Shown piece by piece: positions 78-29,248 of a stretch of DNA of 41,297 nt. The stretch is from IMG/VR virus record IMGVR_UViG_3300025161_000014, positions 1 through 41,297 of that record; one strand, given 5' to 3'. The notes under the pieces were generated by a model. The model saw only the letters and a program-made list of their open reading frames with translations, ran no database searches and was not told the origin of the DNA. The position numbers were made by a program, and so were the translations under genes. The stretch comes from a virus. The first letter of the stretch is position 1. The number at the start of each line of letters is the position of its first letter.

Positions 78-104
78 ACTGCGTTTTTACAAAACATTTG
101 TTAG

Positions 105-441
105 AGAAAAGAGGGGGTGTGGGGGAGCTATAATCCCCCGGTTTTTAAACCGGGGATACATGGACTCCCCCACGTGCTCCGAAGGAGCACATAGCATGGT
201 GGGCGGCGGATGTGTGGTAAAATGCCCCTGGGGACAGCGTTCCCTGTGCACCTTTGAAACTTGGAGTAGGGGGTTCCATCGGGTAGTCCGATGGGTAAAA
301 CTCCAAACGAACACCCGTGGCAGAGCCAGAAGCATTGCGCTCGCCTGCCGATACGGAGTCAAGGTCTTTCTGGGCCTGGACGGGGCCTTCGGGGGAGACC
401 CCGAGAAGCCCCGGACTTTAGTCCGGGGAGTCGTCACCCGA
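105..441 (+). mobile_element. IS200/IS605-type element without tnpB; structured RNA candidate
   Basis: This stretch has no convincing protein gene but is full of hairpins. The left side has CCCCGGTTT/AAACCGGGG and GTGCTCC/GGAGCAC. The middle has TTGGAGT...ACTCCAA enclosing CCATCGG...CCGATGG. The right side ends in CCCCGGACT-TT-AGTCCGGGG followed by AGTCGTCAC. That right end is nearly the same as the remnant at 29221-29248 and shares its hairpin with the right end of the TnpB element at 3589-4965. The two end hairpins with a protein-free middle fit a non-autonomous (PATE/MITE-like) element, possibly an orphan guide-type RNA of the omega/HEARO kind. The exact left boundary and the orientation are uncertain. 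It has no CTCGAG site, unlike the phage backbone. Confidence 0.65.
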
Positions 442-3462: not shown

Positions 3463-3588
3463 TCAATGGTTTGACTTCTCGGCTTTCCCGAGTGTTTCAG
3501 AGGCTACTGCCTGGTCGCGGGTCAATCGCTTGACCGCTTCCAGGTCTTCTACTGACAGGGGTTTGTACTCATACGGATTTGTTATCAC
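3463..3588 (-). CDS. Small hypothetical protein next to TnpB element
   Basis: A 41-residue protein from a GTG at 3588 to TGA at 3463. The sequence (VITNPYEYKP, then LSVEDLEAVK) reads as a compact helical peptide. Its ribosome site AAAGGAG lies inside the left end of the TnpB element, five bases from the GTG. Before the insertion the gene would have sat directly behind the adenine methylase gene, whose last codons (GGAGGTGGAG) would have served as its ribosome site. Function unknown. Confidence 0.5.
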   Translation of the reverse strand: MITNPYEYKPLSVEDLEAVKRLTRDQAVASETLGKAEKSNH

Positions 3589-3669
3589 AGAACTCCTTTC
3601 GCGGATGCCCCGCATTTCAATGCGGGGAGGAAGCGGAAGCCGGGCAAAGCCCGGTGCAGGGTCGTTAAC

Positions 3670-3698
3670 TTGATTTGCGGTTTGATTTTTGGGATACT
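3670..3698 (+). promoter_or_regulatory. Promoter of tnpB 1
   Basis: TTGATT (3670-3675), 17-base spacer and GATACT (3693-3698) lie exactly six bases before the ATG at 3705. Transcription would start at or next to the start codon, giving a leaderless message. Confidence 0.6.
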
Positions 3699-3704
3699 AC
3701 TTTC

Positions 3705-4940
3705 ATGCACAGAGCAGAAACTATTGTGCTCAAGCTGCGCAACCCCGGAGCAGGCAAGCGGCGCTGGCTTGACCAGACCGCTGAACGCTTCCGCCAGGGG
3801 ACGCAGTTGGGGCTTGACTATGCTCTGAGCAACAAAACCTCGAACAGGGGGAAGATCCATGCCGCCACCTACCCAAACATTCGCACTCTGGGGTTGCCTT
3901 CTGACTACTGCCGCATGGCGGTCAACCAGGCTGTACAGCTTGCACGGAGCCATTTCGGGCTGCGCAAGAGCAAACGCAAGGTGGGCAAGCCCACAGTGGT
4001 TCGCAGCCAGGGCATAGGGCTGGGGGTCAACGCTTACAAGGTCGTTGGCACCACCCTGCGGCTGTCCACCGGGCGAAAGGGAGAATACCTCTGGCTTCCC
4101 CTCTGCGTCCCCACAAAGTGGCGGGAACGACTTCGGTGGGTCAAAGGAGATGCTCGGCTGTTCAGGAGGGGCAATGACTGGTTCGTGATGCTGCCCCTGC
4201 GCGTACCCCACACCCCTACCGTCCGTGACGGGCACGGTGAACCCACCGTGATTGGGGTAGACCTGGGTATCGTTCGGTTGGCCACAGCCAAGCACCCCAA
4301 TGGCCTTTTTGTCGCCAATGGTAAACCCATCCGCCACCGCCGGGAGCGCTTCGCTGCTCTGAGAGGCCGCTACCAGCGCCACCGCCGCACCGACCAGGTG
4401 CGGGCTCAAAAGGGCAAAGAGCGTCGCTGGATGACTGACCTGAACCACAAGGTCAGCCGTCAACTGCTCAACCTGGCCCTTCAGTACCCCAACCCGGTGC
4501 TGGCTTTCGAGCAACTCGACGGCATCCGGGATCGGGTGAGAGGGAGCAAACGTTTCAACCGCATGGTCTCCAGCTGGGCCTTCCGGCAACTGGTGGACTT
4601 CGTGCAGTACAAGGCCGAGAAAGCGGGTGTTCGGGTTGTGTTCGTAGACCCCCGCAAGACCAGCCGTACCTGCCCGAGGTGCGGCCATGCCACCCGGGCC
4701 AACCGACCCGAGCAGAGCCACTTCCGATGTGTGGCCTGCGGCTACCAGGGCAATGCAGACGTGGTAGCGAGTCTGAACATCGCTGGCGTAGCGGCTGGAC
4801 TGCTGCGTCAAGGGCCGTCTGACACGGCCCGTTTGGGGCAACCCAAACAGGCTGCTCCCGGCGGGGAGCGGCTGGATGGAGTGAAGGTAGGAGGGCAGCA
4901 ATGCTCGCATACAGACTCCAACCTCGAAAGTTCCGCTTAG
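3705..4940 (+). CDS. tnpB: TnpB RNA-guided endonuclease
   Basis: A 411-residue TnpB of normal length. All catalytic parts are present: RuvC-I in GVDLG (Asp about 186), RuvC-II in AFEQLDGIRDRV (Glu about 269), a zinc ribbon CPRCG...CVACG (Cys about 323, 326, 342, 345) and RuvC-III in GNADVVAS (Asp about 352). The N-terminal half carries the helical recognition region. The ATG at 3705 is preferred to the in-frame codon at 3675 because a leaderless promoter stands before it. Known TnpB proteins cut DNA next to a short target-adjacent motif under guidance of an RNA from the element's right end, and keep the element in place after transposon excision. It needs a Y1 transposase from elsewhere to move. 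Confidence 0.95.
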   Translation: MHRAETIVLKLRNPGAGKRRWLDQTAERFRQGTQLGLDYALSNKTSNRGKIHAATYPNIRTLGLPSDYCRMAVNQAVQLARSHFGLRKSKRKVGKPTVVRSQGIGLGVNAYKVVGTTLRLSTGRKGEYLWLPLCVPTKWRERLRWVKGDARLFRRGNDWFVMLPLRVPHTPTVRDGHGEPTVIGVDLGIVRLATAKHPNGLFVANGKPIRHRRERFAALRGRYQRHRRTDQVRAQKGKERRWMTDLNHKVSRQLLNLALQYPNPVLAFEQLDGIRDRVRGSKRFNRMVSSWAFRQLVDFVQYKAEKAGVRVVFVDPRKTSRTCPRCGHATRANRPEQSHFRCVACGYQGNADVVASLNIAGVAAGLLRQGPSDTARLGQPKQAAPGGERLDGVKVGGQQCSHTDSNLESSA

Positions 4941-4966
4941 GAACCCCCGGACTTCAGTCCGGGGAG
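4790..4966 (+). ncRNA. Candidate omega RNA (reRNA) of TnpB 1
   Basis: By family rule the guide RNA scaffold overlaps the tnpB 3' end and runs through the right-end hairpin. The sequence supports this with strong hairpins in the last tnpB codons (GGGCCGT/ACGGCCC near 4811-4831, TTTGGGG/CCCAAA near 4832-4848, GCTCCCGG/CGGGGAGC near 4853-4870) and the terminal CCGGACTTCAGTCCGG. The guide would be the roughly 16-20 bases after the end, in the 3' part of the methylase gene. No expression evidence. Confidence 0.5.
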
Positions 4967-4970
4967 GATG

Positions 4971-5606
4971 TCAGGCTCCACCTCCATCTTTTTTCATAAA
5001 TACCCTTTCTTCCAACAACTCGAGGCCCGTTTCGGTAGCCTCTGAGTAGAAGGCCATATCAAAAAAAGCCCCTTGCAGTTTGCGTTCTGCAATGAGGCTA
5101 AAGAGCCGGTCGCGGTTTTTGTCTCCCCATGCTATCAAGGCACTTGGGGCTCCCGATGACTGGCGCGGGATTGTACCGTCTGGACGCGCAAAATTGATGC
5201 GCCCTCGAGGGAATACGTAGGCGTGGGCAGTCGGGAAAATCACGCTCTGCCAAAGCTGAGTCTCCACCCTGGCGAAAATAAGCGCGATTCCACCATCGCC
5301 ACCGCTACGGTAGTGGTCAACGAGCTTTCTAACCCACACCTGGGTATGTGGCCCGTAAGGTGGGTTCAAAAAGATGTTGCCTTCCCACGGCTGGATCAGG
5401 CCGTTGTCCTTGACGGTGTAGTGCCGCTTAGCCGTGGGCCACGGCTGCGTCTCTGACGCGCATGGGTCAAGGTCAAAAAAATCAGGCCCCCCGAGTAAAT
5501 TGAGAAGCCATTTCGGGGTGATCCAGTCGTTTGTTTCGCCCTGGAAACCCCGTTCATGTCCAAAGCCGTCTTGCTTCACAGGCTCCCCCCCGCGTGTAGC
5601 ATACAT
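4971..5606 (-). CDS. Phage DNA N6-adenine methyltransferase (Dam type)
   Basis: A 211-residue enzyme of the phage Dam family (Pfam Dam/MT-A70-like phage group). It has the opening NDWITPKWLLNLLG, then FFDLDPCAS, then the catalytic NPPYG (residues about 92-96 with LNPPYGPH), then RGRINFARPDG near the C-terminal third, in the usual order. These enzymes methylate adenine in DNA and protect phage genomes from host restriction. The ATG at 5606 lacks a good ribosome site; a GTG at 5579 behind GGGGGGAG would shorten it by nine residues and is equally possible. Its 3' end touches the right end of TnpB element 1, and the TGA may come from the element. Confidence 0.9.
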   Translation of the reverse strand: MYATRGGEPVKQDGFGHERGFQGETNDWITPKWLLNLLGGPDFFDLDPCASETQPWPTAKRHYTVKDNGLIQPWEGNIFLNPPYGPHTQVWVRKLVDHYRSGGDGGIALIFARVETQLWQSVIFPTAHAYVFPRGRINFARPDGTIPRQSSGAPSALIAWGDKNRDRLFSLIAERKLQGAFFDMAFYSEATETGLELLEERVFMKKDGGGA

Positions 5607-5633
5607 GGCTAAAAAGGAAAAAGGAAATAGGTG

Positions 5634-5843
5634 CTACTCTTCGTAATACTCGGATGTTTTTCCGCTTACCGCTGTTATAAACCAAAAAACAAATAACGAT
5701 CCGATGAAAGTGCACCCAAACGTTATTGCCAAAGCAACTTCTTTGAACAGTATTGCAATGACCAAATTTATCAAACTCGTAACCAGGTTGATAAACCCAC
5801 CGACATAAACCAATAACTCCGGCGCTATTTGAACTCTTGTCAC
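5634..5843 (-). CDS. Small membrane protein
   Basis: A 69-residue protein with two hydrophobic segments (about residues 10-30 and 34-58) and a short charged tail GKTSEYYEE. The start is the GTG at 5843, six bases after TAGCAA, which fits the leaderless pattern although this box is weak. It would sit in the inner membrane. It stands between the methylase and a terminator, close to other membrane proteins at 5921-6815; a holin or antiholin is possible but not shown. Confidence 0.6.
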   Translation of the reverse strand: MTRVQIAPELLVYVGGFINLVTSLINLVIAILFKEVALAITFGCTFIGSLFVFWFITAVSGKTSEYYEE

Positions 5844-5871
5844 CAGGTTTTGCTACAATGTCAAGCCCTCC

Positions 5872-5906
5872 CCAAAAAAAGAGGGACTCGAGTAGCCCTC
5901 GAGCCC
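5872..5906 (-). terminator. Rho-independent terminator
   Basis: On the minus strand GGGGCTCGAG pairs with CTCGAGTCCC across five bases and is followed by TCTTTTTTT. It closes the leftward membrane/lipoprotein group (6815-5921). Confidence 0.7.
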
Positions 5907-5920
5907 CTTCGCCATCGCAT

Positions 5921-6217
5921 TTACCGCAATACCACCCCTGCCGATACCGTGCCCCTGGTTTGCAGTCTGTAGCGCCCTGGGGCATCACAGGAGACTGCCG
6001 AACGCGGCCCTGCGGCTAGGGTATCCCGAAACTGGCAGTTAGGCCCCTCTACAGCTTCTATAGGCCCGCTGCTGGCGGCTACAAACACCCCTCGAGCCTC
6101 CACACTGAACCCATGCGTCCAGGGGGCCTCTACCGGCTCCCGTTTGACGTTGGGGTCATTGAGCGCAGGAAAACACCCCGCCAATGCCAATACCGTCAGA
6201 AAAAGCACCGCTCTCAT
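5921..6217 (-). CDS. Lipoprotein, possible outer spanin
   Basis: A 98-residue protein with a lipoprotein signal: positively charged start, hydrophobic LFLTVLA and lipobox LAGC with Cys at about residue 15. The mature part of about 84 residues has two more Cys and beta-like pattern. A lipid-anchored protein in the host envelope is expected. Its ATG overlaps the end of the upstream gene (6214-6456) by four bases, and its ribosome site is GGGGGCGAGG. A short membrane/coil protein followed by an overlapping lipoprotein resembles i-spanin/o-spanin pairs; this is inference and the mature part is not proline-rich as classical Rz1 is. Confidence 0.65.
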   Translation of the reverse strand: MRAVLFLTVLALAGCFPALNDPNVKREPVEAPWTHGFSVEARGVFVAASSGPIEAVEGPNCQFRDTLAAGPRSAVSCDAPGRYRLQTRGTVSAGVVLR

Positions 6218-6456
6218 GCCTCGCCCCCCTCGGGCTCGGCTAGGGCCTGGGAAAGCAGGTACTCGGCCTTTGCATAGAGGGCTCTCAGTTCGGCTTCCCG
6301 CTGCACGTCATCGGTAAAGAATCGAATCAGAATCTCCGCGTTCTCAAACGATAGCTGCTGGATGATTTTGACCGGCAAAGCGGGATAGCGTTTGCGTAGC
6401 TCATCAGCCAAAGCTGTAATCAAAAGGTTGATTAGACCTGCAACAATCGGGCTCAT
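6214..6456 (-). CDS. Small protein with N-terminal hydrophobic helix, possible inner spanin
   Basis: An 80-residue protein. Residues 3-17 (PIVAGLINLLITALA) are hydrophobic, followed by a charged helical region to the end (REAELRALYAKAEYLLSQ), with no proline after residue 30. It overlaps both neighbours by four bases (translational coupling) and has GGGGAG as ribosome site. The order membrane protein, this gene, lipoprotein suggests a lysis group of holin-like and spanin-like genes. The hydrophobic helix is short, so a cytosolic helical protein is the alternative. Confidence 0.5.
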   Translation of the reverse strand: MSPIVAGLINLLITALADELRKRYPALPVKIIQQLSFENAEILIRFFTDDVQREAELRALYAKAEYLLSQALAEPEGGEA

Positions 6457-6815
6457 TCTTTATGCTCCCCTCGAGACAGGGTGGCAACACCCCCTACAAG
6501 CAAAGCTTGGCGGTTGAAGATGGCCCAAATCGCGATGTAGACGGCTCCTAGCGCCTCTGGCAGAGTAAGGACGCCTGCGACATACCCGCCCAAGGCCGCA
6601 AAAAATGCCGATACAGCCGTGTAAACCGAACCGCTTTTGAGCAGTTCTTTCCAGTCGGCTACCATGATGAGCTTCCACAGACTTGCAAGGCCAAACGGTG
6701 CGCTGATTAGAAGCAAAACCAGGCTCGGCCAATCGGTCGGCGGCTGCGGCGCGGCGGCCAACGCGAACATGATGATTCCCACAACCAACATGAAAACTAG
6801 CACTCGAGCAAACAT
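6453..6815 (-). CDS. Holin-like membrane protein
   Basis: A 120-residue membrane protein. The start ATG at 6815 follows GGGAGGGAT, which excludes the longer reading from 6890. Three hydrophobic segments are clear (about residues 4-22, 30-50 and 70-105, the last possibly two). The C-terminal tail RGEHKE is charged. Size and topology fit a holin but also many other small phage membrane proteins. It is the first gene of a coupled three-gene group with 6214-6456 and 5921-6217. Confidence 0.6.
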   Translation of the reverse strand: MFARVLVFMLVVGIIMFALAAAPQPPTDWPSLVLLLISAPFGLASLWKLIMVADWKELLKSGSVYTAVSAFFAALGGYVAGVLTLPEALGAVYIAIWAIFNRQALLVGGVATLSRGEHKE

Positions 6816-6828
6816 ACCTATCCCTCCC

Positions 6829-7314
6829 TTAGAATCCCACCGGCTGCCCTGGGCGCGGTACATCAGGCCCCAGCTCGCCCGCCTCGCCATTGGCTCCCAC
6901 GATGCGCAAGGCCAGACCTTGCACCTGGGTTTGAATCGGCTGGTTGGCGTTGATATTGCCGGATCGCCCGCGTAACGTCACGCCCTTGGCAACCCACATA
7001 ATCTCGCCGGTGCGCTGGTCAATGGCTTTCAGGTCAACAAGCGGCAACTGAATCAACTCGGATTTACCTACCTGCAACTGCTCTACCGCGTCGCTGTACA
7101 GCGCCAAAAGGCCGATGCTGATGTTGGCGGTGTACTGGTTGTGGACGTGTTCATAGGGATAGGCCGTCCCGATGACATACATCGGGGTCGTCCCCCCGTC
7201 TTCCTGTACGCTCACCTGCTGGGCCTGGCCGATAATTTGATCCCCGTTGCCGTCGCTCAGGTACACGTAACAAAGGTTTGCGTGGCGCGTGTTTTGCTCA
7301 TTCAAAGCTGCCAT
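6829..7314 (-). CDS. Tail tube-like protein
   Basis: A 161-residue beta-rich protein downstream of the tail sheath. ATG at 7314 is preferred because GAGGTGA stands six bases before it; the reading from 7359 has no such site. Motifs such as VYLSDGNGDQIIGQAQQVSV and repeated short strands, plus the position directly after the sheath, fit the inner tail tube of a contractile phage. It ends with a Pro/Gly tail. I do not see a decisive family motif, so the call leans on size and neighbours. Confidence 0.6.
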   Translation of the reverse strand: MAALNEQNTRHANLCYVYLSDGNGDQIIGQAQQVSVQEDGGTTPMYVIGTAYPYEHVHNQYTANISIGLLALYSDAVEQLQVGKSELIQLPLVDLKAIDQRTGEIMWVAKGVTLRGRSGNINANQPIQTQVQGLALRIVGANGEAGELGPDVPRPGQPVGF

Positions 7315-7355
7315 GAAGTCACCTCGAGCTTCACTGTACCCCCGAGTGCGGTCAT

Positions 7356-7389
7356 ACAAAAACCCCCAACGCGCCGAACGTTGGGGGTA
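7356..7389 (-). terminator. Rho-independent terminator upstream of the tube gene
   Basis: On the minus strand CCCCCAACG pairs with CGTTGGGGG across a seven-base loop and is followed by TTTTTG. It lies 40 bases before the tube ATG, so it either ends read-through from the sheath or works as an attenuator for transcripts starting at the TATAAT at 7434-7429. Confidence 0.75.
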
Positions 7390-7428
7390 GGCTTTTTGAG
7401 GCAGCCAGACGCGCCTGACTGCGCCTTT

Positions 7429-7467
7429 ATTATAGCACCACCCCCTGCCGTAACTCAGGGGGTGGTG
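7429..7467 (-). promoter_or_regulatory. TATAAT box beside a 12-bp hairpin
   Basis: A perfect minus-strand TATAAT (7434-7429) is followed downstream by a leader that runs into the terminator at 7356-7389. Directly upstream, in the place of the spacer and -35, is CACCACCCCCTG/CAGGGGGTGGTG (7436-7467), a perfect 12-bp stem. No good -35 is seen. Confidence 0.45.
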
Positions 7468-7509
7468 GGGTGCTCGTGGAGGCCAACCTGAGCACCGCTT
7501 GAATCATAA

Positions 7510-7537
7510 CAAAAACCCCCTGGGGTGGGCAGGGGGG
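7510..7537 (-). terminator. Rho-independent terminator of the sheath gene
   Basis: On the minus strand CCCCCT, nine bases, AGGGGG and then TTTTTG, about 60 bases after the sheath stop codon. With the two hairpins further on it fills the 283-base gap 7315-7597, which holds no gene. Confidence 0.7.
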
Positions 7538-7597
7538 TTACAGGATGGCAGGCTCAGGTAAACTCGCCGAAACCCTGGCCTGCGGCTCTACTATACC

Positions 7598-9319
7598 CTA
7601 TCGGGCTACAAGCCGAACAGGGGTCAGGAATCCTTCAACCAGGATGTAGGCGGCCTCGCCTACGGGGTGAGCCTCAAAACGCACCCGTACCGCGTCAAAC
7701 CCGTCAAACACAAGCTCTACGTTCTCAAAGGCAGGGCGGGCACGGCCATCTGTACCCACCCCTGGCGTGAGTACCCCGCTGGGGTTGAGAGCACCCCGTA
7801 CCTGGCTGTCCAGGTAAGCGACGATCCTCGAGCGCAACCGGCTGGCAAGGCTCTGGTCGGCCACCTGACCCACCTCCACACTGGCGGCTTTACGCACGCC
7901 CTTGAGCAGGGTGTCGTGAATGTCCATGCCGCTGACCTTGCCGTAAATCACGTTGGCATCCGCAACGTAGCTGGTGCGGTTGTTGGCAAAGCGATACTCA
8001 TTGGCCTCGCTGTCAAAGCGCACCGCCAAAAAGCCGTTGGTGAACAGCGAATCGTAATCGGCAGGGGTGTACTGGTAGCTGAGTTTCTGCACACCCACAG
8101 GCTTGTTGAGCAGGCTCATGGCGGGCTCCGAACCGGCCTTGATACCGGCGGCCATTGCCGCGAGGTAGTAGGTCGGATAACGCTGAGTGCCCTCTACCGG
8201 CTCCTGACCTGCAATAATCGCCCTGGCTCCACCGATAAGCTGGCGCAGATTGTTGAGCTTGGTTCCAAGGTCGGTTTTGCTGGTGGACAGGGCCACCCCG
8301 CAATACAGCAGGCGCTCGCGGCGGTTGGCGATGCTCGAGGCGGTCGTGACATGGGCCATAGCAGCGGCCAAGACCTGCTCGTCCCCTGTACCCACTACAA
8401 TCCCGTGCAGGTCGTAGGTATCGGCGATTTCAAACGCGTCTAGCCAATCCTGCAATACCACCGCTGGCCCGTTTGTGCCGCCCGATAGAAAAGCCCATGC
8501 CGAAAGGTCAACAGGCGAGGCAGGTGAGGCGGGCAGTTCGGCGGTGATGAGGCTCGAGTCTGCAAGGGCGTACAGGTAGGCCCTGGCCCCAATGCTGAGG
8601 GTGTACACCCCGCTCGAGGCCGTCACTGTGCCGGTTACAAGGTCGGTGGTGGGGATGCTCGAGCCGAGACTGCCTGCATAATCGGCTGACCACTCGCTAG
8701 AGTCGTTGATGATCTGGTACAGGTCGCCAATGGTGCGGGCCTGGTTAGAAGTGATTGTAAGGGTGCTCGAGCCCGTCAAGGTTACGGTCGTCACTCCACC
8801 CGAGGCGGTCACGGCCACCGAGGGCGAGCCTGCGCCCCCCTGGTAACGCACGGCCAGCACGGGCCCCAAGTTCAGGTACTGCTCGCGCACCCTGGCAACC
8901 AAGTCCTCAACGTACAGGTTGGCAACTCCGGCGGTGATGGTGCGTCTGACCCGAATGGAATTGCTGCTGGGGCCTGGGTTCGATGCGCGAAAAATCACAT
9001 CACCGGCGTCAATGCTGGCCGCAACTGCCTTGTTGACGCGGATGAAGATAACCTGCGAGGCCCCCCTGAATCCTCCGCCCGGGTTGAACACTTTGCTGGT
9101 CAGGTCGTAACCTACGCCTCCCACGAGTCTGCGGTTGGCGGCATTGAGGCTGCTAAACACATCGGCCTGGCCCACGCTCCCACCGTCTGCGACGGCAATA
9201 ACTGCAACGGCCCGCTCATTGCCCCTGCGCTCAGGGGTCATAGCATCCACGTTTAGGCGGGCATATGCGCCTGGGGTCAAGATGATTTCGTTCCCGAAAG
9301 AGACTCCAAACTGGCTCAT
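7598..9319 (-). CDS. Tail sheath protein
   Basis: A 573-residue contractile tail sheath protein. The N-terminus FGNEIILTPGAYARLN has the PG(A/V)Y turn typical of sheath proteins, followed by the conserved core (VAVIAVADGG, then a large beta insert of about residues 130-270), a central helical part, and a C-terminal region with DVIYGKVSGMDIHDTLL and a final beta domain (RVRFEAHPVGEAAYILVEGFL) that matches the sheath fold. Sheath subunits encase the tube and contract to drive it through the envelope. The ATG at 9319 stands six bases behind TAAACT, a leaderless start. It is followed by a strong terminator, in keeping with high expression. Confidence 0.9.
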   Translation of the reverse strand: MSQFGVSFGNEIILTPGAYARLNVDAMTPERRGNERAVAVIAVADGGSVGQADVFSSLNAANRRLVGGVGYDLTSKVFNPGGGFRGASQVIFIRVNKAVAASIDAGDVIFRASNPGPSSNSIRVRRTITAGVANLYVEDLVARVREQYLNLGPVLAVRYQGGAGSPSVAVTASGGVTTVTLTGSSTLTITSNQARTIGDLYQIINDSSEWSADYAGSLGSSIPTTDLVTGTVTASSGVYTLSIGARAYLYALADSSLITAELPASPASPVDLSAWAFLSGGTNGPAVVLQDWLDAFEIADTYDLHGIVVGTGDEQVLAAAMAHVTTASSIANRRERLLYCGVALSTSKTDLGTKLNNLRQLIGGARAIIAGQEPVEGTQRYPTYYLAAMAAGIKAGSEPAMSLLNKPVGVQKLSYQYTPADYDSLFTNGFLAVRFDSEANEYRFANNRTSYVADANVIYGKVSGMDIHDTLLKGVRKAASVEVGQVADQSLASRLRSRIVAYLDSQVRGALNPSGVLTPGVGTDGRARPAFENVELVFDGFDAVRVRFEAHPVGEAAYILVEGFLTPVRLVAR

Positions 9320-9344
9320 ATGCCTAGTTTATCGGCGCGAACAG

Positions 9345-9629
9345 TCAGGATGTTTTGCGGTTCAAAAGGTCACTGACAAGGGCATTCCAGCCCTCGAGGG
9401 TACGCTTGTCGGCTTTGTGCATGGTCAACAGAATGCCCTGCACCCCTACGGGCACGGCAACGCTCTCAAGGTAGGCGGTCAGGGCGATGGGCTCCCCGCT
9501 GGCCTCGGCCTGGGACAGTAGCAGTTCCACCAGTTCGGCCTTGCTCTGGTTGTCAACCTCAAGCCCCCTGGCCTTTGCCAGCGTGATCAGTTCGGCCTTT
9601 GTTTTGGCCTCGAGTTCGGCTCTTTCCAT
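9345..9629 (-). CDS. Rho-N/SAP-like small protein
   Basis: A 94-residue protein whose first 40 residues (KAELITLAKARGLEV, then KAELVELLLSQ) form the helix-extended-helix of Rho N-terminal and SAP-type domains, which bind nucleic acid. The rest is helical and unrecognised. A similar helix-extended-helix occurs twice in the head gene at 23152-23700. Start ATG at 9629, six bases after TATACT (leaderless). It lies just upstream of the sheath gene, where tail completion genes are common. Confidence 0.65.
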   Translation of the reverse strand: MERAELEAKTKAELITLAKARGLEVDNQSKAELVELLLSQAEASGEPIALTAYLESVAVPVGVQGILLTMHKADKRTLEGWNALVSDLLNRKTS

Positions 9630-9883
9630 GCTTCGAGTATACCGTCAAGCAGGGTGGGGGTTGTAGCTCGTATGCGCTTGAACGGGCTGCGCCCCCCCTG
9701 GTGGGTGATGTCCACCATGCCGCAATAGTTCAGCTCGCGCAACGCCTTCTTGACGGTGTTGGTGGCGAGGCCGGTTATCTCCGCTACCTGGGCCTGGGTG
9801 GGTTCGCCCTCAATGCACACACAGACCAGAACGCGCACGGCTTCAGGAGATAGGGTTTTGAGTGCCTGCCGGATGGTTCGCAT
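9587..9883 (-). CDS. Winged-helix transcription regulator
   Basis: A 98-residue protein with a winged helix-turn-helix. Residues about 12-65 show helix (SPEAVRVLVCVCIEG), turn-helix (TQAQVAEITGL) and recognition helix (ATNTVKKALRELNYCG), then a wing (MVDITHQGGRSPFKR). It resembles MarR/replication-type wHTH proteins and the N-terminal part of the initiator at 29854. It starts 24 bases from the divergent portal gene and so is placed to control both the portal and the leftward tail genes. A weak TAGCAA box stands six bases before the ATG. Confidence 0.75.
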   Translation of the reverse strand: MRTIRQALKTLSPEAVRVLVCVCIEGEPTQAQVAEITGLATNTVKKALRELNYCGMVDITHQGGRSPFKRIRATTPTLLDGILEAWKEPNSRPKQRPN

Positions 9884-9893
9884 ATCTGGTTGC

Positions 9894-9899
9894 TACAAT
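9894..9899 (+). promoter_or_regulatory. -10 box of the portal gene (leaderless)
   Basis: TACAAT ends seven bases before the portal ATG at 9907, and no Shine-Dalgarno is present. No clear -35 is seen. The divergent regulator gene begins at 9883. Confidence 0.5.
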
Positions 9900-9906
9900 A
9901 TCAGGC

Positions 9907-11658
9907 ATGACCGACTATAGTTTCTCGATTCCCCTCGACGCCCTAAAGGCCATGACAAAGGGGCCTCGAGATGAGCGTTTTCAAGCCGAAAAAGAAGTGG
10001 CGGCGGTGGCCCGCATAGGTGCGCGGGACATGATGCGGGCTCCCTGGTTCCAGGAGTTTCTACTAAATGCGCAAATGGCGAAAGCGCAAGACCTGGGCCC
10101 TCAACTAAAAAAAATGGGCAAGGCCACACTGGACTTGCAAGACGGTGAAAAACAACACCTCTGGCTTACCCGGCCTGTGGGCCTGGACTTCTGGCAACTG
10201 CGGCAAATTGTTGAGCGCGATCCGGTACTCAAAGGCATCATCCAAACGCGCATAAACCAGGTACAGCGATTTCTCAGGCCCTCCCGCGAACGCTGGCGGC
10301 CTGGGTTCCAGGTGCGTTTCAAATACGAAGAGCACGAGCCTTCGCCCAATGAACGGCGCTATCTCCGGCTCATGGAGGAATACGTACTGAATTGCGGCGC
10401 TGTGACCGATCCCCGCGAACGGCGGCGGTTGCGGCGCGATGATCTATGGGACTGGGTTTTCAAGCACCTGTACGACTCGCTTTCAATGGACGCGGCTCCC
10501 ATCGAGATTATTCCCACAGCCGAAGGAGTCACGCATGGCTGGATTCACGTGGACGGTGCGGCGGTGTTCCTGGTTGACCCGAATGACCCGCTCGAGACCG
10601 AGAATGTCCCGCTGATTGAATCGGCCTATAACCTGCACGTGCCTGACCCTGACCAGGTGACGGCGGTGCTGGCAACTGAGGGCATTGTGCGGGCCTGGTA
10701 CACCCATGACGATATGATTTATAGGGTTCGGCGGCCTCGCACCCAAATAAACAGCCTCAACTACGGGCAGGCCGAGCCCGAGGACTTGATTCAAATCGTG
10801 ACGGGCTTCCTGAACGCGCTGCAGCTCAACCTGCGCGGCTTTACCGATAACTCCCTACCTCGAGGGCTCCTGCTCATGTTTGGGGCTTTCAATCCTGCTG
10901 ATGTAGAAGAACTGAAAGCCCGCTGGGAGGCACAGGTACAGGGCGTGCACAACTTCTGGCGGCTGCCGATGATTGTTGGAGACGATTCGCCCAACCCGAC
11001 AGGGGCGCAATTTATTCCTATCGGCAATGATTTCAACGAGATGTACTTCTCGCGCTGGATGACATTCCTGGTGGCGATAAAGGCCATGCTGTACGCAATG
11101 GATCCCGAAGAGATCAACTTTGAATCATTTACCAACCGGCCCTCGAGCCTTTCGGGTTCCGATACTGAAGAAAGACTTGCATCCAGCAAGGATAAGGGCT
11201 TGTGGCCCTTGATGCAGTACCTCGGGAAAACCATAAACGAACTTCTGGCGACGGTTGACCCACGGCTCGAGTTTGTGTGGACAGGGCTCGAGTCTGACCA
11301 GCAACTGAGCAAACAGGATGAATCGGCCATGCTTACCCTGGGTGAGTTCCGCAAACGGCGGGGTGAGGCTGTTCCAGAGGACGAGGTGATGGCGAATGCA
11401 CCGATGAACCCCGCTTTTATGGGCCTGTACATGCAGCAACTACAGGCCAAACAGCAAGAAAGCATGGGGCAAATGATGCCCGGTCAGGGCATGCCTGGGC
11501 CTGGCAACATGCCGGATACGGACGAACAGGGCAACCGAGTACTTCCAGATGCTGAGGGGCAAATGTACGGGGTTGAACCTGGCAAACAACCTCAGCCGCA
11601 ACAGGGAAAGCCGCAATTCAAGCAACCTCCGCTCGAGCTTGACCAGGAGTCGCCATGA
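9907..11658 (+). CDS. Portal protein
   Basis: A 583-residue portal protein, the ring at the capsid vertex through which DNA enters and leaves. Portal features seen: an N-terminal helical part, RDPVLKGIIQTRINQV (the helix common to portals), KHLYDSLSMDAAPIEII, the stem-region PRGLLLMFGAFNPADVEELKARWEAQVQG, a loop with MTFLVAIKAMLYAMDPEEINF, and a Gln/Met/Pro-rich C-terminal tail (about residues 520-583). The ATG at 9907 is preferred to earlier codons because of the leaderless TACAAT box. Its stop overlaps the next start (ATGA). It is on the opposite strand to the other head genes, so this module has been moved or inverted relative to them. Confidence 0.9.
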   Translation: MTDYSFSIPLDALKAMTKGPRDERFQAEKEVAAVARIGARDMMRAPWFQEFLLNAQMAKAQDLGPQLKKMGKATLDLQDGEKQHLWLTRPVGLDFWQLRQIVERDPVLKGIIQTRINQVQRFLRPSRERWRPGFQVRFKYEEHEPSPNERRYLRLMEEYVLNCGAVTDPRERRRLRRDDLWDWVFKHLYDSLSMDAAPIEIIPTAEGVTHGWIHVDGAAVFLVDPNDPLETENVPLIESAYNLHVPDPDQVTAVLATEGIVRAWYTHDDMIYRVRRPRTQINSLNYGQAEPEDLIQIVTGFLNALQLNLRGFTDNSLPRGLLLMFGAFNPADVEELKARWEAQVQGVHNFWRLPMIVGDDSPNPTGAQFIPIGNDFNEMYFSRWMTFLVAIKAMLYAMDPEEINFESFTNRPSSLSGSDTEERLASSKDKGLWPLMQYLGKTINELLATVDPRLEFVWTGLESDQQLSKQDESAMLTLGEFRKRRGEAVPEDEVMANAPMNPAFMGLYMQQLQAKQQESMGQMMPGQGMPGPGNMPDTDEQGNRVLPDAEGQMYGVEPGKQPQPQQGKPQFKQPPLELDQESP

Positions 11659-12191
11659 ATGCAAAACGCTTTTACAAGGCTCACGCCACTGGCTACCCGC
11701 TGCACAGCCGCCTCAAGTGGCGCGGCCTGAATATCAGCATCGAGAACGGCGTGGGTAGCGTTCGAGAAGGCGTAGACGGTAACGGCAAACCCTGGCGGGT
11801 GAGGATGAAAGTACCCTACGGGTACATACGAAACACCGAATCGCCGGACGGCGATCACCTGGACGTGTTTGTAGGCCCCAACCTGTTGAGCGATAAAGTA
11901 TTTGTCGTCCACACCGTAGACCCCGTTCAGGGGCGCTACGATGAGGATAAAGTTTTTATCGGCTTTGACTCGCCTCAAGGCGCAAAAAAGTGCTTCCTGG
12001 AGCACTATACCGATCCCCGCTGGTATGGCGGCATGACTCAGTTTGATGCTGACCATTTTGTGCTGCTGGTGAAGTCTGGCAAACTCATGAAAAGGAAAGC
12101 GCTGGTTGGCAAACCCGTACCCAACGCCTCAAAAAGCGAGCTGCAAAGACTGCTCGAGATTGCTATTCAAGCGAACACGGTGAAACAGTAA
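11655..12191 (+). CDS. InPase-like polyvalent-type domain protein
   Basis: A 178-residue protein matching the phage 'inorganic pyrophosphatase' domain described in polyvalent proteins. Seen in order: ISIENGVGSVREGVDGNGKPW, VPYGYIRNTESPDGDHLDVFVGP (with the acidic D-x-D-H-x-D cluster), VFVVHTVDPVQGRYDEDKVFIGF, and a C-terminal FDADHFVLLVKSGK. In larger phages this domain is part of giant proteins carried in the virion; here it stands alone. Its substrate is not established. It overlaps the portal gene by four bases, so it is made with it and may be a virion protein. The TnpB element 2 right end begins at its stop codon and leaves it whole. Confidence 0.8.
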   Translation: MNAKRFYKAHATGYPLHSRLKWRGLNISIENGVGSVREGVDGNGKPWRVRMKVPYGYIRNTESPDGDHLDVFVGPNLLSDKVFVVHTVDPVQGRYDEDKVFIGFDSPQGAKKCFLEHYTDPRWYGGMTQFDADHFVLLVKSGKLMKRKALVGKPVPNASKSELQRLLEIAIQANTVKQ

Positions 12192-13482
12192 CGGTTCCCC
12201 TGACTAGAAGTCAGGGGCTTTCGGAAGCCCTGAAGGTGCACGAGAGCAACTCCGAGCCACGAGGCTGCGTTACGCTCAGCCCCACCAGACGAATCACCTG
12301 AGCGCCATTATGGTCAGCATCCCCCACCCACCCACAGTTCCCACACGCAAAGCGCTTGCCCTGCCGCTTGCCGATGTGCAGGCAGTGGTGGCAGGTTTGC
12401 GAAGTGTAGGCGGGGGGTATGGGAATGACCCGCACCCCGGCCAGAGCCGCCTTGTACTCCACGAAGCCGCGCAACTGCTGGAAGGCCCAGGAGTTGCTGC
12501 GGCGACGCTCCGTGGAGTTCCTGGGCTGGGTGTTGCTGCGCTCCCGGATGCCCGTCAGGTCTTCCAGCGCGATGGCCGCACCCAAAGCCTGAGCCTCCGA
12601 GACGATGGCCTTGCTGACCACGTGGTTCACGTGTTTCTGGAAACGTCCCTCTTTGCCCGACAGCCGTCTCAGCAGCGCCCCAGCCCTGCGGCGGGTGCTG
12701 CGCGTGCCTTTCGAGCGGTTCTTCTGCACCATCTGACGGGTCTTTGCGAAGCGGTCCCGCACTTTTGTTACCGCTTGGCCCGACCAGCTTTTGCCCGTGG
12801 AGGTAACGGCTATATCGGTTCTGCCCAGGTCCACCCCGATTACGTCCTGGGGTTCAGCCGCTGGGGGAACCTCCCGCTTGACCTGCACATGCAGCCACAA
12901 TGTGCCCTTGGAGTCCACCAGCGTAGCGCTGGCGGGTTGAGCACCTTGCAGTTTTTGCAGGTGGTATTTGGAGAGCCGAAGGTCAACCCGAAGCCGACCC
13001 TTGACCGTGCTCAGAGAAGCAGTCTCATCCCGCAAACGGAGGTCAAAGATGCGCGCGTCGTAGTCCACCGACGTGGGCTTGAACGCTTTGACTTTGCCGC
13101 CCAACTCCTTTGCCGCCTTGCGGTTCATGCTCACCCGAGCGATGGCCCTTACAGCCAAATTAGCGCTCAACCCGAACTTCTGCCTTACCTCCTTGTAGGT
13201 CAACTGCTGTATCCGGGCGCTGTTCCGGATGTTTTCGGGCACAGCCGCATGGATGTGGTTGCAGGCGTCCGCGAAGGCGACCAGCGTAGACCTCAGAGCC
13301 GCTTCTTGCTCCGGGGTAGGAGCCAGCCTGATTTTCACGGTAAGCACCTGCTGCACGAAAGGAGTATACCACAAAATGTCACTCTATGCGATCAATAACT
13401 TGCGGGGATTCCAGCGGCGTATTCACGCCGCCCTTCGGTTCCTCCCCGCTCTAAAGAGACGGGGCATCCCCGAAGGAGTTCT
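12192..13482 (-). mobile_element. IS200/IS605-family TnpB element 2 (no tnpA)
   Basis: Read on the minus strand, the left end starts AGAACTCCTTCGGGG and has the hairpin GCCCCGTCTC/GAGCGGGG followed by AGGAACC, as in element 1. The right end at 12196-12217 has CCCCTGACTTCTAGTCAGGGG. One intact tnpB lies between; no transposase. The left end touches the GTG of the gene at 13483 and supplies its AAGGAG ribosome site. CTCGAG is absent throughout. A guide RNA, if made, would run out of the tnpB 3' end and take its guide from the end of the InPase gene. Confidence 0.85.
12211..13356 (-). CDS. tnpB: TnpB RNA-guided endonuclease
   Basis: A 381-residue TnpB with complete active site: RuvC-I IGVDLGRTDIA (Asp about 176), RuvC-II AIALEDLTGIRER (Glu about 265), zinc ribbon CHHC...CGNC (Cys about 322, 325, 338, 341) and RuvC-III GDADHNGA (Asp about 348). 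The start GTG at 13356 is chosen because TATACT lies exactly six bases before it; an upstream TTG would place the promoter inside the gene. It differs strongly from TnpB 1 in sequence although the element left ends match. The broken tnpB at the right edge of the window is closer to this one (ALEDL, GIRER). Confidence 0.95.
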   Translation of the reverse strand: MQQVLTVKIRLAPTPEQEAALRSTLVAFADACNHIHAAVPENIRNSARIQQLTYKEVRQKFGLSANLAVRAIARVSMNRKAAKELGGKVKAFKPTSVDYDARIFDLRLRDETASLSTVKGRLRVDLRLSKYHLQKLQGAQPASATLVDSKGTLWLHVQVKREVPPAAEPQDVIGVDLGRTDIAVTSTGKSWSGQAVTKVRDRFAKTRQMVQKNRSKGTRSTRRRAGALLRRLSGKEGRFQKHVNHVVSKAIVSEAQALGAAIALEDLTGIRERSNTQPRNSTERRRSNSWAFQQLRGFVEYKAALAGVRVIPIPPAYTSQTCHHCLHIGKRQGKRFACGNCGWVGDADHNGAQVIRLVGLSVTQPRGSELLSCTFRASESP

Positions 13483-13725
13483 GTGAAAAGCTACTACTTG
13501 CTATTGTGGGGCGGCCACGCCTGGGATGAGATGCGTTTTGATCACCCACAGGCGGCTGTGGCCTATGCGCAGGAGCATTTTCCGGCTCCAAAGTACGCTG
13601 TATACGTGATAAGCAAAAAAACTTCACGTACCAAATTCGTTGTTTATCACCGGCACGGGACACCAGGCCAAACCCTGGCAGACCTGCGCAACGCTACCGC
13701 TAAAAACAGTACGATGCAGGTATGA
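13483..13725 (+). CDS. Small hypothetical protein
   Basis: An 80-residue protein from a GTG start with AAGGAG five bases before it. That ribosome site belongs to the left end of TnpB element 2. The sequence has aromatic-rich strands (SYYLLLWGGHAWDEMRF, YAVYVISKK) and a short basic stretch; not recognised. It overlaps the following gene by four bases and so opens a rightward operon of tail-fibre genes. Confidence 0.65.
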   Translation: MKSYYLLLWGGHAWDEMRFDHPQAAVAYAQEHFPAPKYAVYVISKKTSRTKFVVYHRHGTPGQTLADLRNATAKNSTMQV

Positions 13726-29125: not shown

Positions 29126-29220
29126 GCTTGCATTTTACTTACCCTTGCGGTTGGATTTTTTGCGGTAGTCTTTTTTGTTTTGGCTTTTTGCGCCTGGTAA
29201 ACTTCCTCGAGTTCCAAAGC
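29122..29220 (-). pseudogene. Detached 3' end of a gene
   Basis: The minus strand of this 100-base stretch reads ALELEEVYQAQ, then KAKTKKTTAK and ends KMQA with TGA overlapping the next start as ATGA. It has the stop/start overlap of a real operon gene and a Lys-rich end, but no start. The element remnant at 29221-29248 separates it, out of frame, from the gene at 29435. It is best read as the original C-terminus of that gene or of a gene lost with it. Confidence 0.4.
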
Positions 29221-29248
29221 CTCGGACTTCAGTCCGGGGAGTCGTCAC
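29221..29248 (+). mobile_element. Solo IS200/IS605-type end
   Basis: CTCGGACTTCAGTCCGGGGAGTCGTCAC matches the right end of the element at 413-441 in all but two bases and keeps the hairpin. No second end is present to the left. It encodes the last residues (CDDSPD) and stop of the gene at 29435, so it has changed that protein's end. Confidence 0.65.

What the first reader, a model, noticed from the sequence alone, without database searches (positions are those of the whole stretch)
3585..13490. TnpB elements insert at GTGA starts and supply a new ribosome site to the gene they hit
Seen: both intact TnpB elements (3589-4965 and 12192-13482, opposite strands) abut a GTGA, and in both the GTG is the start codon of the neighbouring gene (3588 leftward, 13483 rightward). 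In both, the element's own left end reads outward as AAGGAGTTCT directly before the GTG, so the Shine-Dalgarno lies in the transposon. Known: IS200/IS605 and HEARO/IscB elements have short fixed targets, and ATGA/GTGA is reported for some. Inferred: choosing stop/start overlaps and bringing an outward ribosome site makes the insertion harmless to the host gene, which would favour survival in compact phage genomes.
Basis: partly seen in the sequence, partly recalled or inferred. Interest (0 to 1): 0.78.

Follow-up and report, generated by a model that had tools for sequence, protein, structure and literature searches.

The report
Transposon ends that mimic gene junctions
Two jumping elements in a heat-loving bacterium's phage sit exactly where one gene stops and the next starts, and their own ends carry a stop signal for the first gene and a ribosome-binding sequence for the second, which could let them insert without breaking either gene.

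Summary
Two TnpB elements of different subfamilies (3589-4974 and 12188-13482) abut GTGA, and AAGGAGTTCT lies inside each element. Twelve insertion sites, including element 1, have natural empty counterparts: target present once, no duplication, AAGGAG absent from element 1's empty site. The elements behave like IS200/IS605 members. The target TCAN is matched by a guide at the left hairpin (37 of 42), and TCAN read backwards is NTGA, a start codon that can overlap a stop.
Insertions cluster at gene junctions: 13 of 21 sites of the window's class (background 3.7%) and 14 of 21 ATGA sites of sister classes (background 10.2%). All six distinct phage sites found are junctions. Much of this follows from the motif plus loss of gene-breaking insertions, but an excess remains for the GTGA class. 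Not noticed before: the right end reads outward CTGA or GTAA and restores the upstream gene's stop in frame.
The ribosome-site claim holds only for one left-end class. Sister classes hit start codons without one, and AAGGAG persists away from starts, so function is unproven. This is a new variant of a known kind.

The parts
3589..4974 (+). Element 1, TnpB-only IS200/IS605-like, 1386 bp
   Evidence: LE next to TCAC and constant RE ...GATGTCAG shared by copies with different flanks; natural empty site L159
3585..3588 (+). Target TCAC (reads GTGA on the - strand; GTG is the start of the hit frame)
3593..3598 (-). Outward AAGGAG inside the left end, 4 nt before the GTG; with its 5' neighbours GAAAGGAG complements the 16S tail CTCCTTTC
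   Evidence: not in the empty site
3604..3607 (+). Left guide GATG, predicted to pair with target TCAC
   Evidence: pairing rule from PMC5934647 passages
3608..3627 (+). Left-end hairpin
3705..4940 (+). tnpB of element 1 (411 aa, P0001)
   Evidence: PF07282 E 2.8e-23 above cut-off; PF01385 hit below its cut-off
4810..4985 (+). RNA family HgcC match (presumed TnpB guide RNA), running 11 nt past the right end into the flank
   Evidence: Rfam RF00062, 52.6 bits, gathering 50
4971..4974 (+). Right cleavage site TCAG; outward CTGA gives the upstream gene its TGA stop
3463..3588 (-). Hit frame of 41 codons beginning at the GTG
4971..5606 (-). Upstream gene, Dam-like methyltransferase; stop codon lies in the element's right end
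   Evidence: PF05869 E 1.1e-13
12188..13482 (-). Element 2, TnpB-only IS200/IS605-like, 1295 bp
   Evidence: same boundaries in L009, L010, L089, with three different flanks in all
12211..13356 (-). tnpB of element 2 (P0002; start codon placed by eye at a GTG)
   Evidence: PF07282 E 8.5e-21 and PF01385 E 2.6e-9, both above cut-off
12188..12191 (+). Right end read outward, GTAA; makes the TAA stop of the upstream gene
11655..12191 (+). Upstream gene, pyrophosphatase-like, ending in the element
   Evidence: PF18823 E 5.1e-39
13473..13478 (+). Outward AAGGAG inside the left end of element 2
13483..13486 (+). GTGA (target TCAC on the other strand)
13483..13725 (+). Hit gene of 80 aa, chained by an ATGA overlap to the next gene
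   Evidence: found in two other phage contigs

Best explanation
These are TnpB-only IS200/IS605-type elements. Shown: they insert without target duplication 3' of TCAN, and a tetranucleotide at the foot of the left hairpin matches that target by the IS608 pairing rule. On the other strand TCAN reads NTGA, i.e. a start codon that can overlap a stop. Shown: surviving insertions lie mostly at gene starts, stops or stop/start overlaps. Shown by sequence: at such a site the downstream gene keeps its start codon, and with right ends ending TCAG or TTAC the upstream gene keeps a stop in the same frame (CTGA or GTAA). Shown: in one left-end class, the window's, the element also places AAGGAG 4-11 nt (in one case 4 or 16 nt) before the start, where the native ribosome site has been moved more than 1 kb away by the full-length elements. 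Inferred: because both frames survive, such insertions escape selection, most of all in compact phage genomes. Inferred and least certain: the outward AAGGAG is actually used by ribosomes. The transposase is supplied in trans (inferred; no tnpA was found beside class A ends).
For: Empty sites: 12 distinct sites align contiguously with natural loci (17 alignments, all spanning), NTGA once; at two of them other species show ATG/GTG exchange at the site, as start codons do (L114/L203, L108/L205). Guide-target match 37 of 42 at the left end, with TCAC/GANG, TCAT/GANA, TCAA/GAGT. Position: class A 13 of 21 at junctions against 3.7% of 433 background GTGA sites (p 3.7e-14), and 13 of 20 against 26% of non-disruptive sites (p 2.6e-4). 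Phage class A sites 6 of 6. ATGA classes 14 of 21 against 10.2% of 693. Independent annotation: L152 start at 2443 equals the target at 2440-2443. Ribosome site: 16S tail GGATCACCTCCTTTCT in 43 of 61 genomes; class A left ends mean -11.3 kcal/mol against native -5.3.
Against: AAGGAG is kept at non-start sites and changed in L007 and L208. Classes without it also sit at starts. In element 2 the predicted outward RNA pairs GAAGG with an upstream CCTTC. Restoring the stop is not clearly tied to stop sites: class A 8 of 16 against 0 of 5, p 0.06; by my count there is no such tie in class C, where three TGAC-ended copies also sit at stops. For ATGA sites the excess over non-disruptive background is weak (14 of 19 against 53%, p 0.055). 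The four tnpB-less copies found by right end in bacterial genomes are all called intergenic. Annotated starts do not support the T. thermophilus plasmid copies L149-L151 as start insertions.
Confidence: 0.66

Rival explanations
1. By-product only: a 4-base target that happens to be a reversed start/stop overlap, plus loss of gene-breaking insertions. CTCCTT in the left end is a transposase-side or spacer sequence inherited by all members, and neither end was shaped by translation.
For: Non-disruptive background already contains 53% junctions for ATGA. AAGGAG retained away from starts. Left ends shared by TnpBs only 34% identical. Class C lacks AAGGAG yet hits starts.
Against: Excess over non-disruptive GTGA sites (13 of 20 against 26%, p 2.6e-4). 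Spacer sequence is otherwise free to differ between classes that share the TCAC target (A and B).
Confidence: 0.45
2. Active targeting: the single-strand transposition machinery prefers gene junctions or translation-start regions for a reason beyond the tetranucleotide.
For: Junction excess over non-disruptive sites in class A.
Against: Numbers are small; promoters and 5' regions counted as intergenic may themselves be selected against. IS608 is reported to need its guide-paired tetranucleotide and to prefer C at +1 (PMC5934647 passages).
Confidence: 0.12
3. The AAGGAG belongs to the host genes and was merely next to the insertions.
For: In L253 the native flank also carries AAGGAGTTGA next to the target.
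Against: Empty sites of W1, L100, L133, L134, L135 and L139 show other sequences directly before GTGA, while the left ends keep AAGGAG.
Confidence: 0.03

Closest known systems
IS200/IS605 family (IS608, ISDra2), TnpB-only IS1341-like elements
   Same: TnpB with Cas12f1-like TNB domain, insertion 3' of a short target without duplication, subterminal hairpins, guide-target matching, HgcC-type RNA at the right end
   Different: Target TCAN coincides with start/stop codons; one class carries an outward ribosome-site sequence; right end restores a stop; no tnpA in the element
HEARO/IscB elements
   Different: No HEARO match in Rfam; proteins are TnpB, not IscB
IStrons (group I intron plus IS200/IS605)
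   Same: A device that makes an IS605-type insertion harmless to the gene it hits (PMC4227781 abstract and passages)
   Different: IStrons act by RNA splicing inside genes; here no intron was found, and the reading frames are kept by codons and possibly a ribosome site at the element's ends
Insertion sequences that affect the next gene's expression
   Same: The element can influence the gene next to it (PMC3196728 passages)
   Different: Here a translation signal rather than a promoter; no promoter-like site by the sigma-70 scan

Membership tests
IS200/IS605 (TnpB-only) | TnpB/OrfB protein | tested here: met
   PF07282 in both, above cut-off; PF01385 above cut-off only in P0002
IS200/IS605 (TnpB-only) | Insertion 3' of a short fixed target without duplication | tested here: met
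   12 sites with natural empty loci, target once
IS200/IS605 (TnpB-only) | Left guide tetranucleotide matching the target | tested here: met
   37 of 42 by script; one of the five misses (L122) is a parsing failure
IS200/IS605 (TnpB-only) | Right guide matching the right cleavage site | tested here: inconclusive
   12 of 42 by a crude parser; by eye, where the hairpin foot was found, it read AAAG/TTAC, CAAG/TGAC, GAAC or GAGC/TCAG
IS200/IS605 (TnpB-only) | Y1 transposase TnpA, in the element or in trans | tested here: inconclusive
   None in the elements. Y1_Tnp in 30 of 111 genomes; of the 30 tnpA loci fetched none carries class A ends, while L235 and L241 carry class C1-like left ends, but next to TGAA with guide CAGT
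IS200/IS605 (TnpB-only) | RNA-guided cleavage next to the target motif | not testable with these tools
   needs biochemistry
HEARO/IscB | IscB protein and HEARO RNA | tested here: not met
IStron | Group I intron at one end | tested here: not met
   no Rfam intron match at gathering threshold

The most novel reading that the evidence does not exclude
The ends are adapted as a translational seam: the right end supplies the upstream gene's stop (CTGA or GTAA) and the left end supplies the downstream gene's ribosome site, so a transposon can sit inside a translationally coupled gene pair and leave both proteins intact. This would be a protein-level counterpart of IStron splicing that favours life in compact phage genomes.
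Probability: 0.33. Interest if true: 0.82.

Novelty: new variant of a known kind. Interest (0 to 1): 0.62.

Why it matters
It offers a concrete, testable reason why TnpB elements persist in gene-dense genomes: the target motif is a reversed start/stop overlap, so the insertion rule itself spares genes. If the outward ribosome site works, it shows a mobile element evolving translation signals at its ends to stay harmless, and it gives a rule for placing inserts in operons. The target is also expected to serve as TnpB's recognition motif (as in ISDra2, PMC8612924 passages), so the RNA-guided nuclease would patrol gene starts.

Tried and rejected
Tried without result: a tnpA with class A ends; a sigma-70 outward promoter; close relatives in annotated phages (no match, only distant TnpBs); a natural empty site for element 2 (the two near relatives both carry the element). 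Literature: searches found no paper in the held library, as far as the listings and the passages read show, that reports start-codon insertion or an outward ribosome site for this family; most subscription papers are not held.

Rejected: AAGGAG as host sequence. Also rejected as a proven link: that restoring the stop goes with stop sites (p 0.06 in class A).

Dropped rows: of the 57 genome loci fetched plus L007, L009-L011, L013-L016 and the window's two elements, 49 had both ends recognised. L093 (contig end) and six duplicates (L007, L010, L011, L105, L136, L137) were left out, giving 42. Not analysed: L101, L128, L138, L140, L013, L014, L016 (an end not recognised), L015 (no right end), and L126, L127, L129-L131, L141-L145 (tnpB fragments). 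Left-end-only copies L015, L208, L218 are outside the counts, as are the annotated plasmid and phage copies L146-L155, which were only looked at by eye. In the empty-site search 30 of the 42 sites were queried, and the tool scored two candidates per genome, so a miss is not an absence. The gene caller is home-made: it missed the starts at W1 and W2, called the murI start L114 'inside', and called L094 'intergenic' although it splits an ABC ATPase. No correction was made in the counts. The AAGGAG retention is biased upward, since the left-end patterns used favour it; the right-end search was free of that bias, and three of its four added copies keep AAGGAG.

Full report
What is there. The window is a virus record of 41,297 bases with phage genes, including a portal-like gene. 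Two TnpB elements lie in opposite orientation. Both carry tnpB alone. Their proteins are 34% identical over 212 aa, but the first 28 bases of their left ends are 93% identical. The exact sequence AAGGAGTTCTGTGA, reading outward, occurs only at these two ends.

Boundaries. Copies with unrelated flanks fix both ends. The left end starts directly after TCAC. The right end finishes ...GATGTCAG for the element 1 type and ...CCGTTAC for the element 2 type. A natural empty site for element 1 exists in another phage contig, L159: GGAGGTGGAGC-GTGATAAC. It matches the predicted junction without a gap over 123 bases. In all, 12 distinct insertion sites have empty counterparts (17 alignments, all spanning the junction), each with the target once. 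At L114 and L108 other species carry ATG or GTG at the target position, the exchange expected of a start codon. The empty sites show that AAGGAG is the element's.

Target rule. IS608 pairs a left guide with its target, and the two T's of TTAC pair with the first two guide bases (PMC5934647, passages). Applying that rule, 37 of 42 left ends match, and the last guide base follows the target: GATG or GAAG with TCAC; GATA, GAGA or GAAA with TCAT; GAGT with TCAA. TCAN reversed is NTGA, so the same four bases can be a start codon and, one base on, a stop.

Where insertions survive. I joined flanks, called genes with a simple codon model, and compared insertion sites with all other NTGA sites in the same DNA. 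One search covers 42 distinct sites. ATGA: 14 of 21 at start, stop or just upstream of a start (13 at starts, 7 of these also stops), against 10.2% of 693 background sites. GTGA: 11 of 19, against 3.1% of 913. TTGA: 0 of 2. For the window's left-end class with extra copies: 13 of 21, against 3.7% of 433. The phage copies are 6 of 6, and 5 of 6 overlap the upstream gene's stop. Part of this must come from loss of gene-breaking insertions. Against non-disruptive background the excess is clear for GTGA (13 of 20 against 26%, p 2.6e-4) and marginal for ATGA (14 of 19 against 53%, p 0.055). Counter-examples exist: sites inside or antisense within called genes (L092, L099, L102, L125, L132), an ABC ATPase gene that copies L094 and L218 appear to split (read by eye), and intergenic copies.

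The right end. Read outward, the right end begins CTGA (element 1 type) or GTAA (element 2 type) and takes the place of the target's GTGA in the same frame. The Dam-like gene therefore stops at TGA (4971-4973) and the pyrophosphatase-like gene at TAA (12189-12191), both inside the elements. Other right ends read GTCA and do not restore the stop at that place. Within class A, stop sites are 8 of 16 for restoring ends and 0 of 5 for non-restoring ends, p 0.06. In class C three non-restoring copies also sit at stops, so the association is not established.

The left end. The 16S tail GGATCACCTCCTTTCT is present in 43 of 61 genomes of the class, so GAAAGGAG is a good ribosome site. Class A left ends score a mean of -11.3 kcal/mol (15 rows, one of them the altered allele L007 counted with class A) against -5.3 for the native sequence before the target, while class C left ends score -0.7 (22 copies) and random 18-mers -3.6. 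Class B left ends score -8.5 (5 copies) through G-rich sequence rather than AAGGAG. In 12 of 21 class A sites a start codon lies 0-12 nt beyond the target (by eye), which puts AAGGAG 4-11 nt before it (4 or 16 nt in L139, depending on the start chosen). Against function: AAGGAG is kept at sites without a start, is altered to GAAAGGTTTTTT in L007 (the same site as element 1) and similarly in L208, and is partly paired in the predicted RNA of element 2. The ribosome-site step is therefore plausible but unproven.

Non-autonomous copies. Three phage copies of 354-357 bp (L253, L255, L256) keep both ends but no intact tnpB, and all sit at stop/start junctions. A tnpB gene in the element is thus not needed for the position. 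Four tnpB-less copies found by right end in bacterial genomes (61-576 bp) are called intergenic.

Transposase. Y1 transposase genes occur in 30 of 111 genomes. None of the 30 loci fetched has class A ends. Two (L235, L241) have class C1-like left ends, but these sit next to TGAA and carry guide CAGT, which fits the same pairing rule with another target. A related autonomous element thus exists, and the source of transposase for the window's class is unknown.

RNA. Rfam's HgcC family matches 4810-4985 of element 1 above its gathering score, running 11 nt past the right end into the flank. From recall, HgcC-type RNAs correspond to TnpB guide RNAs. No intron and no HEARO match was found at the gathering threshold.

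Conclusion. Insertion at start/stop sites is real and strongly enriched in this family in Deinococci genomes and phage contigs, mostly because the target is a reversed start/stop overlap. The ribosome-site idea applies to one left-end class and awaits a reporter test.

Noticed in passing
window 101-437: A tnpB-less element-like stretch: its left part is 73-93% like the left ends of tnpA-bearing elements in the class, and parts of both ends are 97% identical to stretches in Thermus phage phiLo.
   Followed up: partly
window 29217-29247: An orphan right-end-like hairpin CGGACTTCAGTCCGGGGAGTCGTCAC with no left end seen nearby.
   Followed up: no
L253, L255, L256, L265: Internally deleted copies of 354-357 bp, and one of 61 bp, that keep both ends; the longer ones also keep the 3' part where the guide RNA would lie.
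   Followed up: partly
L253, left end and right flank: The first bases of the left end (TCAACTCCTTT) equal the first bases of the right flank, so the native site already held AAGGAGTTGA; chance, or capture of host sequence by the left end.
   Followed up: partly
L235 1348-1375 and L241 1408-1437: tnpA-bearing elements with class C1-like left ends next to TGAA and guide CAGT: a change of guide seems to have moved the target within one lineage.
   Followed up: partly
L159 near 3100: The empty site matches the presumed guide of element 1 for 12 bases and then differs, which would weaken recognition by TnpB.
   Followed up: no
window 3585-4910 (-): A 441-codon open frame antisense to tnpB of element 1, probably a GC-rich artefact.
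   Followed up: no
L094 and L218: Two copies in one genome each end in half of what looks like one ABC ATPase gene, as if recombination between copies had rearranged it.
   Followed up: no
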